A program made the position numbers and the translations under genes. 35,534 nucleotides of DNA. Origin: Longimicrobium sp. GTDB taxonomy: Bacteria; Gemmatimonadota; Gemmatimonadetes; Longimicrobiales; Longimicrobiaceae. Location of the stretch: the NCBI GenBank assembly GCA_036389795.1, contig DASVWD010000224.1, positions 1-35,534 on the forward strand, written 5' to 3'. The notes beneath the pieces are model-generated. The model ran no database searches and was not told where the DNA came from. It saw only the letters and a list, made by a program, of their open reading frames with translations. Of this stretch, positions 555-32,298 are shown piece after piece (the first letter of the stretch is position 1; each line of letters begins with the position of its first letter).

Positions 555-653
555 GGCAGTGCTAAGTGCTTAGTCCTTAGTGCGTTAGTGGCGGACGGCC
601 GCCTTTTGCACTCCTACCAAGCACTTAGGACTAAGGACTAAGGACTCAGCACT
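555..653. repeat. Heptad-array inverted repeat between convergent genes
   Basis: The left arm (about 556-590) is built from units such as GTGCTTA and GTCCTTA. The right arm (about 620-653) carries their complements (TAAGGAC, TAAGCAC). The arms can pair into an imperfect hairpin about 35 bp long. The element fills the whole gap between the lipoprotein stop and the epimerase stop, so it may act as a bidirectional terminator. That role is inferred. Confidence 0.75.
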
Positions 654-1061
654 TCAGTCCCGGTGCTCGAGGAGCTCGATCAGGACGCCGCCGGTGCTCT
701 TCGGGTGGAGGAAGGCCACCATGTGGCCGGCGGCGCCGGGGCGGGGCTCCTCGTCGATCAGCCGGGCGCCGGCGGCGCGCCAGCGGGCCAGCTCGGCGCG
801 CAGGTCGCCGACGCGGTAGCACAGATGGTGCATCCCCGCCCCGCGCTTCGCGAGGAACTTCGCCACGGCGGAGTCGTCGCGGGTGGGGGCCAGCAGCTCC
901 AGGCGGCCCGGGCCACGGCCGACGAAGACGACTTCGACGCCCTGCTGCTCGACGCGCTCGCGGCCGTACCCCTTCCCACCCGTGATAGATTCGAAGGTGG
1001 GGAGCGACTCGTCCAGCGAGTGCACGGCGATGCCGACGTGGTCCAGCGCCCGCTCGGTCAT
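654..1061 (-). CDS. mce: Methylmalonyl-CoA epimerase
   Basis: A 135-residue vicinal-oxygen-chelate enzyme that interconverts (R)- and (S)-methylmalonyl-CoA, the step before B12-dependent methylmalonyl-CoA mutase in propionate and odd-chain metabolism. The family signature is clear: an N-terminal DHVGIAV block (metal ligand H8), LELLAPT at 54-60, GMHHLCYRV near 76-84, and a C-terminal LIELLEHRD with acidic ligand E129. The length is normal for the family. The ATG start at 1061 has GAGGAG upstream on the minus strand. It is divergent from thioredoxin, sharing a 110-base intergenic region. No mutase gene lies nearby. Confidence 0.93.
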   Translation of the reverse strand: MTERALDHVGIAVHSLDESLPTFESITGGKGYGRERVEQQGVEVVFVGRGPGRLELLAPTRDDSAVAKFLAKRGAGMHHLCYRVGDLRAELARWRAAGARLIDEEPRPGAAGHMVAFLHPKSTGGVLIELLEHRD

Positions 1062-4579: not shown

Positions 4580-4738
4580 GCCGCTGGTGGGTTGCTCCCG
4601 CGCACGAATGCCCGCCGACACGATCCGAATCCCCACGGTCTTCGTGACGACCCTGTGCTTCCTTGCGGGATCTCTACCCCGCGAAGATCTTCCGACCGCC
4701 CGCCGCGCCCCATCCACGATCCTTCGAGACCACGTCCG

Positions 4739-6552
4739 ATGCCGAACCCCGTCGCCGCGCCCGACACCGTCCCCGCCTCCGCCAGCGCGGGGGCGAGGAC
4801 GCGCGCGCGGCGGTCGACGCGCTGAACGAGCGGGCGTACGAGCTGCGCTACGCCGACGCGGCCGAGGCGGTGCGGCTGGCCGGCGAGTCGCGTGCGGCGG
4901 CCGAGGCCGCCGGGTACGCGCGGGGCGTCGCCTGCGCCCTGCGCGCCTCCGGAGTGGCCCGCTGCCTCCGCTTCGAGCTCGACGCCGCCACCGCCGACCT
5001 GGAGGAGGCGCGGCGGCTGTTCGCGGAAGCCGGCGACGAGCGGGGGCGGGCCTCGGCGCTCAACTGGCTGGGCAACACCGCCTGGCGCCAGGCCGACTAC
5101 CCGGCGGCGCTGCGCCTCCACCTCGAGGCGCTCCAGGCGCAGCGCGCGGCGGGCGACCGCGCCGGCGAGTCCGACTCGCTCAACTTCATCGGCAACGTCC
5201 ACTACCACATCGGTGAGTACGCGCGCGCCCTGGAGCACTACCAGCAGTCCGCGCGCATCAAGGAGGAGATCGGCGACCTGCGCGGGCTGTCGCAGTGCGT
5301 CAACAACGTGGGCAACATCCACGCGCAGCTCGGCGACTACCGCCAGGCGCTGGAGTTCCACCGGCGCGCGCTGGAGCTCAAGCGGGGCGCCGCGGACCGG
5401 CAGGGCGAAGCCGTCTCGCTGGTGAACGTGGGCTCCGGCCACGAGGCGCTGGGCGAGTACGACCAGGCGCTCGAGTTCTACCACGCCGCGCTCGACCGGG
5501 CCCGCGAAGTGGGCGACCGCTTCGTGGAGGCCGACGCCCTGCGCGACCTCGGCGACGTGCACCGCAAGCTGGACGACCCGCGGCGGGCGCTGGAGTGCTA
5601 CCGGGCCGCGCTGGAGGTGGCGCGCGGCGCGGGGGCGCGGATGGTGGAGGCCGAGGTGCTGATCGGGATCGGCCGCACCCTCACCGGCACGGGTGACGGA
5701 GCGCAGGCCATCGAGTCGCTGCGCGAGGCGCTCGCGGCCGCGGAGGAGATGCGGTCGCGGCGCCTGATCTACGAGGCCCACCGCGCGCTCTCGGAGGCGC
5801 ACGAGGCGCGCGGCGAGCTGGCCGAGGCGCTCCGGCACTTCAAGGCGTTCCACGAGGCCGAGGAGGCGGTCTTCAGCGCCGAGTCGGAAAAGCGCATCCA
5901 GGGGATCCTGGCCGCGGCCGAGATCGAGCGCACCCAGCGCGAGGCCGAGCTGCTGCGCGGCAAGAACGAAGAGCTCACCGGGGCCAACCGCGCGCTCGCG
6001 TCCGCCAACGAGGAGAAGGCGCGCCTCCTGGCGCAGCTGCGCGAGCAGGCCGGGGAGCTGGACCGCCTCTCGCGCGTTGACGCGCTCACCGGACTCTTCA
6101 ACCGACGCCACGTCGACGAGCGGCTCGCGTTGGAGTGGGAGCGGGCCCGCCGGTTCGGCCGCGACCTCACCGTGGCGCTGGCCGACCTGGACCACTTCAA
6201 GCAGGTCAACGACCGCTTCGGCCACGCCGCGGGCGACGCGGTGCTGCGCGAGGTGGGCCGCATCTTCCGCGAGGGCACGCGCCACGTGGACGTGGTGGGC
6301 CGCTACGGCGGCGAGGAGCTCGTCCTGCTGCTGGTGGAGACGCCGCCCGAGAAGGCCGCCGGCTGCTGCGAGAAGCTCCGCACCGCCGTCGAGTTGCACG
6401 ACTGGACGGCGATCCACCCCGAGCTAGGTGTGACCGTCAGCATGGGCTTGGCGGGCAACCACGCGGTGGAATCGCCCGAAGCGCTGGTCGCCGCGGCGGA
6501 CGCGCGGCTTTACGAGGCGAAGCGCGGCGGACGGAACCGGATCTGCTGCTGA
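4739..6552 (+). CDS. TPR-GGDEF diguanylate cyclase (apparent frameshift near start)
   Basis: A cytoplasmic signalling protein of about 600 residues: N-terminal tetratricopeptide repeats (recurring LGDY..AL.. and ALE.Y..AL motifs), a coiled-coil linker (about 5880-6070) and a C-terminal GGDEF domain. The signature is GGEEL (codons from 6307), active-type, with an upstream RHVD that fits the RxxD inhibitory site for c-di-GMP. It should make c-di-GMP from two GTP under control of a TPR-bound partner. ATG 4739 opens a frame with every third base G or C and an N-terminus like the downstream paralog's, but this frame stops at about 4825. The TPR frame is one base out of register. One extra G in the GGGGG run at 4789-4793 would join them. 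Without this, the start would be a non-ATG codon such as TTG 4663, in a stretch with poor codon usage. Confidence 0.85.
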
Positions 6553-6625: not shown

Positions 6626-6667
6626 AGCGTGTCCCTTCATTCATTCCGTGACCATCCTGAATCGACA

Positions 6668-8443
6668 ATGAATCCCACAGTCGACTCCGAGGCGGGAGCC
6701 GAGGGCCTCACGGAGCATCCTGATCCACGCACGGCCGTCGACGAGCTCGCGCGGCGAGCGTGGAACGCCCGCTTCACCAAAGCACAGGAAGGTGTCAGGC
6801 TGGCCGAGCAGGCCCTCGCACTGGCCAAGCGGGAAGGCTACTGGAGCGGCGTCGGGTACGCGCTGCTCAGTCGGGGCACCTGCCGCACCCTGTTGCTGGA
6901 GCACGGCGGCGCGCTCGCCGACCTCGAAGAAGCAGCCCGCATCTTCGAGGAAACCGGCGACCTCAGTGGGAAGGCAAGCGCGCTGAGCCGGATCGGTGAC
7001 GTGCGCGTCCGCCTCTCCGAAAGCCTGGCCGCCCTGCCGCCGCTGCTCGAGGCGCTGCGGCTGCAGCGGGAGGCCGAAGATCGCCAGGGCGAGTCCATCA
7101 CGCTCAATTTCCTGGGCAATCTATATTTCGGGCTCGACGAGTTCGCCCAGGCCCTGGAGTACTACCACCAGAGCCTTTCGATGAAGGAGGAACTGGGCGA
7201 CGAGCAGGGCGTCTCCAGGTGTCTGAACAACATCGGCAACATCCACGCTCGCCGGGGCGAATACGGCGAAGCGACGGCGTACTACCAGCGGGCACTGGCC
7301 CTTCAGCGCGAGTTGGGAGATCTCCATCTCGAGGGGATCTTGCTGACCAACATCGGCGCGACCTGGGACGCGCAGGGCCATTACGACCGGGCGCTGGATT
7401 GCTACCGGACCGCGCTCGACGATGCGCGCCGGAACGGAGAGCGGCGCACCGAGTGTGATGCGCTGTGCAACCTCGGTGACTCCTTCCGCAAGCAGGGCGA
7501 CCTGCCGCAGGCGCTCGCATACCTGGGCAAGGCCCTGGAAGCCAGCCACTCCACCGGGCTGAAGCTGGAGGAGACCGATGCGCTCCTCCGCCTGGGGCAG
7601 ACGTTCGCCGCGGCCGGAGACGACGAGCGTGCCCGCGAGCACCTGTTCCGCGCGCTCGAGCTGGCGAGGCAGATCCAGGCCCGCGCGCCCGAGTCCGAAG
7701 TGGAGCGCGAGTTATCGGAACTCCATGAGCGGCGTGGCGACGCCGCGGCGGCGCTGGAGCACTTCAAGCGCCACCGCGAGGTCCAGGACGAGATCTCCAG
7801 CATCCAGTCCGAGAGGCGCATCCAGAGCATCCTGGTGCGGGCCGAGGTGGAGCGGACGCAGCGCGAAGCCAGGATTCTGCGCGAGAGCAACGAGGAGAAG
7901 ACGCGCCTGCTGGAACAACTCCGCGAGCAGGCCGAAGAGCTGGACCGCCTCTCGCGCGTTGACGCGCTCACCGGCCTCTTCAACCGCCGCCACGTAGACG
8001 AGCGGCTCGCGCTGGAGTGGGAGCGTGCCCGCCGCTTCGGCCACGACCTCACCGTGGCGCTGGCCGACCTGGACCACTTCAAGCAGGTCAACGACCGCTT
8101 CGGCCACGCCGCGGGCGACGCGGTGCTGCGCGAGGTGGGCCGCATCTTCCGTGAGGGCACGCGCCACGTGGACGTGGTGGGCCGCTACGGCGGCGAGGAG
8201 CTCGTCCTGCTGCTGGTGGAGACCCCGCCCGACAGGGCCGCCGGCTGCTGCGAGAAGCTCCGCGCCGCCGTCGAAGCGCACGACTGGTCCGCGATCCACC
8301 CCGATCTGCGCGTGACCGTCAGCATGGGGCTGGCGGGAAACCATGACGCCGACTCACCCGAAGCGCAGATCGCCGCGGCGGACGCGCGGCTGTACGAGGC
8401 GAAGCGCGAGGGGCGGAACCGCGTCTCGGGCGTGTCAGCTTAA
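6668..8443 (+). CDS. TPR-GGDEF diguanylate cyclase (tandem paralog)
   Basis: A 591-residue paralog of the preceding gene with the same architecture: TPR repeats to about residue 370, a coiled-coil linker (near 7800-7940) and a GGDEF domain with GGEEL at residues 508-512 and the RHVD inhibitory-site motif just before it. It is predicted to synthesise c-di-GMP in the cytosol; no membrane segment is seen. ATG 6668 is chosen over GTG 6629 because the upstream codons are not GC3-biased. The GGDEF-encoding DNA is nearly identical to the first copy, including one run of about 107 bases, while the TPR half is much more diverged and uses more A/T-ending codons. This is consistent with gene conversion. 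Its TAA overlaps the stop of the convergent antitoxin-like gene. Confidence 0.92.
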   Translation: MNPTVDSEAGAEGLTEHPDPRTAVDELARRAWNARFTKAQEGVRLAEQALALAKREGYWSGVGYALLSRGTCRTLLLEHGGALADLEEAARIFEETGDLSGKASALSRIGDVRVRLSESLAALPPLLEALRLQREAEDRQGESITLNFLGNLYFGLDEFAQALEYYHQSLSMKEELGDEQGVSRCLNNIGNIHARRGEYGEATAYYQRALALQRELGDLHLEGILLTNIGATWDAQGHYDRALDCYRTALDDARRNGERRTECDALCNLGDSFRKQGDLPQALAYLGKALEASHSTGLKLEETDALLRLGQTFAAAGDDERAREHLFRALELARQIQARAPESEVERELSELHERRGDAAAALEHFKRHREVQDEISSIQSERRIQSILVRAEVERTQREARILRESNEEKTRLLEQLREQAEELDRLSRVDALTGLFNRRHVDERLALEWERARRFGHDLTVALADLDHFKQVNDRFGHAAGDAVLREVGRIFREGTRHVDVVGRYGGEELVLLLVETPPDRAAGCCEKLRAAVEAHDWSAIHPDLRVTVSMGLAGNHDADSPEAQIAAADARLYEAKREGRNRVSGVSA

Positions 8444-12352: not shown

Positions 12353-12369
12353 GAGCGGCGCAGCCGCTC
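12353..12369 (+). terminator. Short hairpin after FAH gene
   Basis: GAGCGGC (12353-12359) and GCCGCTC (12363-12369) form a seven-base stem with a three-base loop, one base after the stop. It abuts the 148-bp dispersed repeat. Confidence 0.5.
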
Positions 12370-12516
12370 CCGCGTGAGGGATGCGCGCCCGGAGGGCCGG
12401 GACGGCGCCGCCACACGGGGTATCGTGGCGGCGCTGGCCCGGCGCGGTTGGGCACAGTCGTATCGTGCCCTACCGCGCGCGCAGCCCGGCCCGGAGCGCA
12501 GCGGAGGGACACGCCC
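12369..12516. repeat. 148-bp dispersed structured repeat, copy 1
   Basis: About 97% identical to 24851-24997. The ends GCGTG and CACGC can pair to close the element. Inside are a GC-rich stem (arms at about 12405-12414 and 12425-12434), a GGGCAC/GTGCCC hairpin and other GC-rich arms. In the main stem one G-C pair is C-G in the other copy. The element lies between the FAH gene and lspA and is not coding in a way shared by both copies, since they differ by a one-base indel. Confidence 0.85.
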
Positions 12517-12522
12517 GGAACC

Positions 12523-12604
12523 GCAGTGCGTTAGTCCTTAGTGTTTTAGTCCCTGGCACTAAGCACTAAAACACTAAGGACTAAGCACTTCGCACTTCGC
12601 ACTC
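12523..12604. repeat. Heptad-array inverted repeat
   Basis: GTCCTTA/GTGTTTTA units on the left and their complements (TAAAACAC, TAAGGAC, TAAGCAC) on the right form a compact hairpin with almost no loop. It ends in GCACTTC heptads. It lies 28 bases before lspA. Confidence 0.75.
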
Positions 12605-12631
12605 GAGGGGGACCCCCTGCACTACGCAAAA

Positions 12632-19177: not shown

Positions 19178-19299
19178 CAGTGCTGAGTGCTGAGTGCTGA
19201 GTCCTGAGTGCAAGTGCTTAGTGTTTAGTCCTTAGTCCTTAGTCCTTAGCACTTAGCACTTAGCACTCAGGACTAAAGCACTAAGGACTAACGCACTCC
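19178..19299. repeat. Long heptad-array inverted repeat
   Basis: The array begins GTGCTGA three times and GTCCTGA, continues with GTGTTTA and GTCCTTA units, then turns into complements (AGCACTT, AGGACTA). At about 120 bases it is the longest heptad element here. It ends five bases before the stop of the DtxR-family gene. Confidence 0.8.
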
Positions 19300-24831: not shown

Positions 24832-24850
24832 ACTCATCGCCGCGACAGAA

Positions 24851-24997
24851 CCCGCGTGAGGGATGCGCGCCCGGAGGGCCGGGACGCCGCCGCCACAGGG
24901 GTATCGTGGCGGCGGTGGCCCGGCGCGGTTGGGCACAGTCGTACCGTGCCCTACCGCGCGCGCAGCCCGGCCCGGAGCGCAGCGGAGGGACACGCCC
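24851..24997. repeat. 148-bp dispersed structured repeat, copy 2
   Basis: Same orientation as 12369-12516, with three substitutions in the stem and loop region, one loop substitution and a one-base deletion. Two of the substitutions are a paired change that preserves the stem. It completes the 501-base gap between mutS2 and dnaG, which is composed almost wholly of repeats. Confidence 0.85.
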
Positions 24998-31819: not shown

Positions 31820-32014
31820 TTGGGGTCAGCGGCCGAAGCACCCTGCAGAAGTCACGGGAGCGTCCTTTCCGACAAAGAGGCGCCCCAGTTTGTCCCGTCT
31901 GCGACGAAGTGGGACCCGGGACGTCGCGCGGCGGAACGCATGTTGCCCGCCTTTTTCCGCCCTCACCCCAGTGCGGGTCGGCTGGACCCGCCGCACACGA
32001 ACCCGGAGGAAGAC

Positions 32015-32230
32015 ATGGGCACGATGTTCACGAAGGTCCGGAACGGGCTGCTGGCAGCGTCGATGATGGCGGCGCTCGGCTTCGGCGCGGTGCAGGCGTT
32101 CGCCAGCCCGGCGGAGGCGCAGAGGGACCCGACGTGCAGCCCGGGGCAGTGCAACAAGCAGTGCCAGGCGCAGTTCGGCCCGTTCGCCCACGGCTTCTGC
32201 GAGATGGGCGTCTGCAACTGCGCCGTCTGA
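32015..32230 (+). CDS. Secreted six-cysteine peptide with defensin-like (CS-alpha-beta) spacing
   Basis: A 71-residue precursor. ATG 32015 has GGAGGA at 32004-32009. Residues 1-30 or 1-35 are a Sec signal (K/R n-region, hydrophobic LLAASMMAALGFGAV, cleavage at AFA or AEA). The mature peptide of about 36-41 residues has six Cys: C41, C46, C50, C62, C67, C69. The pattern C-x4-C-x3-C-x11-C-x4-C-x1-C has the C-x3-C and C-x-C pairs of the CS-alpha-beta fold. G60-F61-C62-x4-C67 meets the gamma-core rule of defensins. Predicted disulfides are 1-4, 2-5 and 3-6. It may be an antimicrobial or a signalling peptide; alternatively a metal-binding Cys-rich exported protein. No immunity or export gene is adjacent. 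A strong terminator follows. Confidence 0.8.
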   Translation: MGTMFTKVRNGLLAASMMAALGFGAVQAFASPAEAQRDPTCSPGQCNKQCQAQFGPFAHGFCEMGVCNCAV

Positions 32231-32251
32231 CCGCGGGTCCCGGGAACGGAA

Positions 32252-32298
32252 GACGGGGCGCCTCCTGCGAGAAGGAGGCGCCCCGTCTCCGTTTTCTT
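32252..32298 (+). terminator. Strong terminator after six-Cys peptide gene
   Basis: A perfect 15-base stem, GACGGGGCGCCTCCT (32252-32266) with AGGAGGCGCCCCGTC (32273-32287), and a six-base loop; TCCGTTTTCTT follows. It lies between convergent genes. Confidence 0.9.

What the first reader, a model, noticed from the sequence alone, without database searches (positions are those of the whole stretch)
32015..32230. Bacterial secreted peptide with complete CS-alpha-beta (defensin-type) cysteine pattern
Seen: signal peptide plus six Cys spaced x4-x3-x11-x4-x1, with C-x3-C, C-x-C and a GxC...C gamma-core. Known: this is the defensin/scorpion-toxin framework, and defensin-like peptides have been proposed in a few bacteria such as myxobacteria. 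Inference: this is a bacterial defensin-like antimicrobial or signalling peptide. It has a strong Shine-Dalgarno and terminator, so it is a genuine expressed unit.
Basis: partly seen in the sequence, partly recalled or inferred. Interest (0 to 1): 0.8.

Follow-up and report, generated by a model that had tools for sequence, protein, structure and literature searches.

The report
Expanded bacterial defensin-fold peptide family
This bacterium carries about 27 copies of a small exported peptide that shares one export tag and the defensin/scorpion-toxin fold but differs greatly in the rest of its sequence, a pattern best known from venom peptides and apparently undescribed in this bacterial phylum.

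Summary
ORF 32015-32230 (+) encodes a 71-aa precursor with a signal peptide (predicted cleavage AFA|SP) and the frame C-x4-C-x3-C-x11-C-x4-C-x-C, with GxC. It has a strong Shine-Dalgarno and a strong terminator.

This is one member of a lineage-specific family. About 27 loci lie in the same genome, and relatives occur in 11 of 21 genomes of its taxonomic family; nothing convincing was found elsewhere in the phylum. The leader (ALGFGAxQALA) is conserved. The mature part keeps little besides the cysteines and one glycine. A 9-copy tandem array sits between two genes that are direct neighbours in three relatives.

The CS-alpha-beta fold is well supported: AlphaFold core pLDDT about 90 or more (helix plus beta-hairpin), and profile and structure searches return scorpion K-channel toxins and defensins. 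dN/dS is 0.3-0.7 in the leader and 1.0-1.4 in the mature part.

Function is not shown. The peptides are not cationic (mean net charge -0.3), and no exporter or immunity gene was recognised beside them. My best guess is a diversifying arsenal of exported antagonistic peptides; signalling is the main rival. Verdict: a new variant of a known kind.

The parts
32005..32011 (+). Shine-Dalgarno GGAGGAA, 5 nt (from GGAGG) before the ATG
   Evidence: read from sequence; nearly all family members have a GGAGG-like site at the same place
32015..32230 (+). precursor gene, 71 aa, stand-alone unit between a divergent DUF3667 gene and a convergent NAD kinase gene
32015..32104 (+). signal peptide / conserved family leader, residues 1-30, ending LGFGAVQAFA|
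   Evidence: leader conserved in 64 collected homologues; 61 end in Ala and 3 in Gly at the same position
32105..32227 (+). mature 41-aa CS-alpha-beta peptide, net charge -1
32135..32221 (+). cysteine scaffold C41-x4-C46-x3-C50-x11-C62-x4-C67-x-C69 with conserved Gly60 (GxC)
   Evidence: Cys2-6 invariant, Cys1 and Gly at least 90% in 47 homologues
32141..32176 (+). predicted alpha-helix (residues 43-54) carrying Cys2 and Cys3
   Evidence: AlphaFold2 model
32189..32224 (+). predicted beta-hairpin (residues 59-63 and 66-70) carrying Cys4, Cys5 and Cys6
   Evidence: AlphaFold2 model
32251..32288 (+). intrinsic terminator hairpin (possibly bidirectional, shared with the NAD kinase gene)

Best explanation
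The gene encodes one member of a large, lineage-specific family of exported, disulfide-stabilised CS-alpha-beta (cis-defensin-fold) peptides in a Gemmatimonadota family (probably Longimicrobiaceae). A shared Sec-type leader carries each precursor across the inner membrane. Signal peptidase cuts at AxA, and VKOR/DsbA-type enzymes oxidise the cysteines to give a helix pinned to a beta-hairpin. The family grows by tandem duplication and dispersal. The leader and scaffold are kept while the exposed loops change fast, so each genome holds its own set of binding surfaces. The most likely use is a diversifying arsenal aimed at extracellular or cell-surface targets of competitors or predators (antagonism). 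Shown by computation: export-type leader, scaffold, predicted fold, paralogue expansion, array at an otherwise empty site, faster change in the mature part. Inferred: cleavage, oxidation, release beyond the outer membrane, target and antagonistic role. My confidence is about 0.9 for the fold and export, and about 0.4-0.45 for the antagonistic role.
For: 27 matches in the own genome with the single protein and 28 with the profile, 24 in G379 and 14 in G311. One of the 28 is a contig-end duplicate of another, so about 27 loci. The leader is specific: all hits with E below 0.1 to a synthetic consensus leader in the own genome are at family loci. Profile of 47 mature peptides against PDB: top hits are CS-alpha-beta (alpha-KTx 19.1 1q2k E 2.5e-6, nasonin-1 2koz, cobatoxin 1pjv, insect defensins), and the first two share the family's commonest spacing 4-3-9-4-1. 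AlphaFold2: H13-24, E29-33, E36-40, mean pLDDT 83.4, 23 residues at 90 or above. All 50 listed VIA rows are CS-alpha-beta peptides (scorpion toxins; plant, insect and fungal defensins); best 1r1g Z 4.7, rmsd 1.2, 31 aligned. The eight-Cys branch gives the same fold. Leader dN/dS 0.32 (0.27-0.39) against mature non-Cys 1.00 (0.82-1.31) at equal dS in 16 disjoint pairs. A 9-copy array lies between FKBP and amidohydrolase genes that are neighbours in G032, G180 and G399. VKOR and DsbA-like thioredoxin families present in all five genomes tested. Precedent: actifensin/AMSIN, bacterial CS-alpha-beta peptides with antibacterial activity and positively selected sites (PMC6989792, PMC8819291).
Against: Net charge near zero or negative, unlike most antimicrobial defensins. 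No ABC exporter, protease or immunity gene was recognised beside the window gene or within the array, unlike actifensin operons (compare); only part of the neighbourhood was annotated by family search. [quoted passage not shown] Several same-genus genomes have none. dN/dS around 1 may also reflect relaxed constraint on loops and is approximate at these divergences (pairwise NG86; selecting pairs by low pS biases it upward). Foldseek E-values are weak (best 0.25), as expected for a 41-residue chain.
Confidence: 0.5

Rival explanations
1. Signalling or kin-recognition peptides: each strain releases its own set of scaffolded peptides that are read by cognate receptors, so that diversity itself is the message.
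For: Hypervariable mature part on a constant leader and scaffold; neutral charge; no toxin-type operon seen; patchy presence within a genus.
Against: No receptor gene linked to the window gene or array was recognised. A nine-copy array of different peptides at one locus is unusual for a pheromone (inference).
Confidence: 0.22
2. Anti-eukaryote peptides: ion-channel or membrane ligands against grazing protists, nematodes or fungi, working like scorpion alpha-KTx.
For: The commonest spacing 4-3-9-4-1 is identical to BmBKTx1 (alpha-KTx 19.1) and nasonin-1, the best PDB hits; the top structural neighbours are K-channel blockers.
Against: The window peptide and most relatives lack the basic character of K-channel blockers (net charge -5 to +3, mean -0.3; role of charge from established knowledge). 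Fold similarity does not show target.
Confidence: 0.12
3. Periplasmic or envelope inhibitors or binders (for example protease inhibitors) that never leave the cell.
For: The leader is Sec-type and no outer-membrane exporter was recognised nearby; some CS-alpha-beta proteins are enzyme inhibitors (established knowledge).
Against: Does not readily explain about 27 diversifying copies and the fast-changing loops.
Confidence: 0.12
4. A decaying, relaxed gene family with no current strong function.
For: Mature dN/dS near 1; one copy with an internal TGA and one truncated frame; absence from some close genomes.
Against: Cys and Gly positions are almost invariant across 47 members, the leader is constrained, and ribosome-binding sites are kept in nearly all.
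Confidence: 0.06

Closest known systems
Actifensin / actinomycesin (AMSIN), NCBIfam NF038042 actinodefensin (Actinomyces)
   Same: Bacterial CS-alpha-beta peptides, clustered copies, divergent mature parts, positively selected sites (PMC6989792, PMC8819291). 11 of 30 family members match NF038042, best E 9.3e-5.
   Different: Actifensins are thought to be exported by a linked ABC system with a GA-type leader, at most seven copies were reported in one genome, and the published frame has a longer first loop (x5-12). Here the leader is Sec/AxA type, no ABC genes were recognised beside it, there are about 27 loci, the first loop is usually x4, and the charge is near zero.
Bacterial cis-defensin classes I-V, especially class II (xanthusin-1, Myxococcota), PMC11561630
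   Same: Secreted, matches the class regular expression (57 of 65 here), GxC gamma-core; the 10-residue tail before Cys1 resembles class II (9-13 residues).
   Different: Those 74 peptides come from Proteobacteria, Acidobacteria and Actinobacteria; the text names no Gemmatimonadota. No large paralogue family with an invariant leader was seen in the passages read. Sequences were not compared directly.
Scorpion alpha-KTx 19.1 (BmBKTx1) and nasonin-1
   Same: Same cysteine spacing as the family's commonest frame, same predicted fold.
   Different: Animal peptides; the window peptide itself has an 11-residue third loop and is slightly acidic.
Conotoxin-type venom gene families (from established knowledge)
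   Same: Works like: constrained leader, kept cysteine scaffold, fast-changing mature peptide, many paralogues.
   Different: Bacterial, one basic scaffold, no venom gland; only an analogy of evolutionary mode.

Membership tests
CS-alpha-beta (cis-defensin / scorpion-toxin-like) superfamily | Cysteine frame CxxxC ... C ... CxC with GxC | tested here: met
CS-alpha-beta (cis-defensin / scorpion-toxin-like) superfamily | Helix followed by a beta-hairpin, with the CxxxC pair in the helix and CxC in the last strand | tested here: met
   Predicted only; eight-Cys branch
CS-alpha-beta (cis-defensin / scorpion-toxin-like) superfamily | Sequence-profile similarity to solved members | tested here: met
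   Profile search (best E 2.5e-6). The window sequence alone finds nothing and no Pfam cut-off was shown to be passed
CS-alpha-beta (cis-defensin / scorpion-toxin-like) superfamily | Disulfides C1-C4, C2-C5, C3-C6 actually formed | not testable with these tools
   Model coordinates were not readable and no experiment is possible; oxidative machinery is present
Bacterial defensins, classes I-V (PMC11561630) | Regular expression CX(2,18)CX3CX(2,12)CX(4,17)CXC, 30-130 aa | tested here: met
   (window peptide); 57 of 65 family members
Bacterial defensins, classes I-V (PMC11561630) | Signal peptide, no other membrane segment (Phobius) | tested here: inconclusive
   Phobius not available; the n-, h- and c-regions and AxA site are read directly and conserved
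Bacterial defensins, classes I-V (PMC11561630) | Assignment to one class by homology | not tested
Actinodefensin / actifensin | Linked ABC transporter and processing genes | tested here: not met
   Flanks of the window gene are DUF3667 and NAD kinase; array flanks include FKBP, NYN and amidohydrolase
Actinodefensin / actifensin | Match to NF038042 above its cut-off | tested here: inconclusive
   11 of 30 members match, best E 9.3e-5, but the window peptide does not match and the cut-off was not printed for members
Cationic antimicrobial defensin | Net positive charge | tested here: not met
   Window mature peptide -1; 64 members mean -0.3, range -5 to +3
Cationic antimicrobial defensin | Antimicrobial activity | not testable with these tools
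   needs peptide synthesis and assay

The most novel reading that the evidence does not exclude
A venom-like evolutionary system in a free-living bacterium: one export leader and one disulfide scaffold serve as a platform for a large, lineage-specific, positively diversifying repertoire of exported ligands that are neither cationic antimicrobials nor actifensin-type bacteriocins and have new targets (competitor surface proteins or eukaryotic predators).
Probability: 0.3. Interest if true: 0.82.

Novelty: new variant of a known kind. Interest (0 to 1): 0.64.

Why it matters
Bacterial CS-alpha-beta peptides bear on the proposed prokaryotic origin of defensins and are sought as antibiotic leads. 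The surveys read here place them in Actinobacteria, Myxococcota/Proteobacteria and Acidobacteria, with at most seven copies reported in a genome. A Gemmatimonadota family with about 27 loci in one genome, a fixed leader, fast-changing loops and near-neutral charge would add a phylum, a new expansion mode and a natural set of variants of one scaffold. It also makes testable whether bacterial defensin-fold peptides diversify against moving targets.

Tried and rejected
Chance cysteine pattern: rejected (paralogues). Cytoplasmic zinc-ribbon or metallothionein-like peptide: unlikely given the uniform AxA leader and the CS-alpha-beta spacing; metal binding was not tested. Mobile-element origin: no match in plasmids, phages or IMG/VR. 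Rfam: only a sub-threshold match of the terminator hairpin to traJ-II, taken as chance. Inspection of upstream regions showed ribosome-binding sites but no shared promoter motif by eye. The single weak profile hit outside the family (G084, partial, in a 503-aa frame) was not followed. Papers: no Gemmatimonadota defensin was found by search; the bacterial survey cited as Dash et al. was not found in the library, so its species list could not be checked.

Full report
OBSERVATION. The ORF at 32015-32230 (+) is as described: 71 aa, a hydrophobic leader ending LGFGAVQAFA|SP, then six cysteines spaced x4-x3-x11-x4-x1 with G-F-C before Cys4. GGAGG lies 5 nt before the first ATG, and a very stable terminator hairpin follows. 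The gene stands alone between a divergent DUF3667 gene and a convergent NAD kinase gene. The motif is not chance: the strict form occurs in 0 of 300 Markov windows, and the gene has many homologues.

A PARALOGUE FAMILY. A six-frame search of the window's own genome (7.5 Mb, 285 contigs) with this one protein gives 27 places down to E about 1; a 30-row profile gives 28. One of these is a contig-end duplicate: contigs C30 and C184 share an exact 141-bp end overlap. So about 27 loci remain, one of them with an internal stop. Counts are lower bounds, because only 150 candidates per genome are scored. Other genomes of the same genus have 24, 14, 9, 5, 3 and 2 matches, and three have none. In the wider family 11 of 21 genomes have matches. 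In 395 genomes drawn from the phylum, nothing convincing appears outside this taxonomic family. The named genomes with the closest dxs gene are Gemmatimonadetes MAGs at 56-58% identity, so the phylum is Gemmatimonadota; Longimicrobiaceae is my inference from genome size, composition and background knowledge, and was not tested. No relatives were found on plasmids, phages or viral contigs.

ANATOMY. Sixty-four homologues were collected. The leader is shared (consensus ...VAAALGFGAAQALA|xP); 61 of 64 end in Ala at the same position and the other 3 in Gly. A consensus leader used alone as a query found only family loci with E below 0.1 in the own genome. In 47 mature peptides Cys2-Cys6 are invariant and Cys1 and the GxC glycine are at least 90% conserved; mean column identity is only 30%. 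The commonest frame is 4-3-9-4-1 (16 of 64). Fifty-one have six Cys, ten have eight, three have fewer. Net charge averages -0.3 (range -5 to +3); the window peptide is -1.

FOLD. A profile of the mature part searched against PDB sequences returns CS-alpha-beta peptides at the top: alpha-KTx 19.1 (E 2.5e-6), nasonin-1, cobatoxin 1, sapecin, insect defensin A. The first two share the 4-3-9-4-1 spacing. AlphaFold2 on the window peptide gives a helix (mature residues 13-24) and a two-stranded hairpin (29-33, 36-40) with pLDDT about 90 or more in the core. That puts Cys2 and Cys3 in the helix, Cys4 in strand 1, and Cys5 and Cys6 in strand 2, the defining topology. VIA-align rows are all scorpion toxins and defensins (best Z 4.7, rmsd 1.2 over 31 residues); absolute Z and Foldseek E-values are modest, as expected for so short a chain. 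The eight-Cys branch is predicted with the same fold. Disulfide pairing itself was not tested. Single members match Pfam Defensin_2, Toxin_2 and Gamma-thionin, and NCBIfam actinodefensin, only weakly.

EVOLUTION. Across 2016 pairs mean identity is 0.49 in the leader and 0.25 in the non-Cys mature part. In 16 disjoint pairs chosen by leader identity, leader dN/dS is 0.32 (0.27-0.39) and mature dN/dS 1.00 (0.82-1.31), with equal dS (0.49 and 0.53). Choosing by leader identity depresses leader dN, so the test was repeated with pairs chosen by low synonymous difference: leader 0.57-0.74, mature 1.01-1.40; that choice inflates both ratios. The robust statement is that the mature part changes its amino acids about two to three times faster than the leader at similar synonymous divergence, while keeping its cysteines. 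Positive selection is suggested, not proven.

ARRAY AND EMPTY SITE. Nine copies stand head to tail on contig C30 (11788-14247), next to a divergent FKBP-type isomerase gene and an NYN-domain gene; five copies stand at the same FKBP/NYN neighbourhood in each of G311 and G379. Joining C30 to C184 through the 141-bp overlap places an amidohydrolase gene on the far side. In G032, G180 and G399 the FKBP and amidohydrolase genes are direct neighbours (about 200-310 bp apart), with no peptide gene detected between them. So the array was gained or lost at a fixed site. The join rests on a contig-end overlap inside a repeat family and is likely rather than certain. No exporter, receptor or immunity gene was recognised inside the array or beside the window gene.

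HOW IT PROBABLY WORKS. Sec export, signal-peptidase cleavage at AxA, and oxidation by VKOR/DsbA-type proteins (present in all five genomes tested) would give compact peptides in the periplasm. How they cross the outer membrane is unknown. The pattern of constant leader, constant scaffold, fast-changing surface, tandem birth and patchy distribution is what one expects for molecules that meet variable targets outside the cell; antagonism is my first choice (about 0.4-0.45), recognition/signalling the second. The near-neutral charge and the lack of recognised immunity genes argue against a classical membrane-acting bacteriocin.

COMPARISON. Known bacterial CS-alpha-beta peptides are actifensins/AMSIN (operons with ABC transporters, at most seven copies reported in a genome, antibacterial; PMC6989792, PMC8819291) and five classes mostly from Myxococcota and other Proteobacteria (PMC11561630; xanthusin-1 of class II folds as CS-alpha-beta but showed no antimicrobial activity). 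Neither survey's text names Gemmatimonadota. An earlier survey cited by them (Dash et al.) could not be read, so a prior listing of some of these sequences cannot be excluded. I rate this a new variant of a known kind.

Noticed in passing
window 4663-6552 and 6629-8443: Two adjacent genes encode TPR-rich, GGDEF-like proteins whose C-terminal halves are near-identical (300 nt at 95%, starts 6006 and 7888): a recent tandem duplication or gene conversion.
   Followed up: no
window 616-656, 2757-2797, 12566-12606, 19230-19284: Interspersed intergenic repeats built of a heptamer-like unit (CTAAGNA / ACTAAGG), in both orientations; the same kind of repeat follows the last array copy in L049 (G311).
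   Followed up: partly
window 12356-12516 and 24838-24997: A roughly 160-bp intergenic element present twice, 98% identical over 100 nt and 88% over the adjoining 64 nt; possible mobile or structured repeat.
   Followed up: no
L038 (G000:C98:22181-22692): Two neighbouring family members, one an eight-Cys variant and one with an internal TGA and a truncated frame: gene birth and decay within the family.
   Followed up: partly
L054 and L065 (G379:C15, G311:C38): A conserved two-gene pair: an eight-Cys member followed by a member with only four Cys, conserved between two genomes at about 72% identity; the four-Cys form may be a distinct functional type.
   Followed up: no
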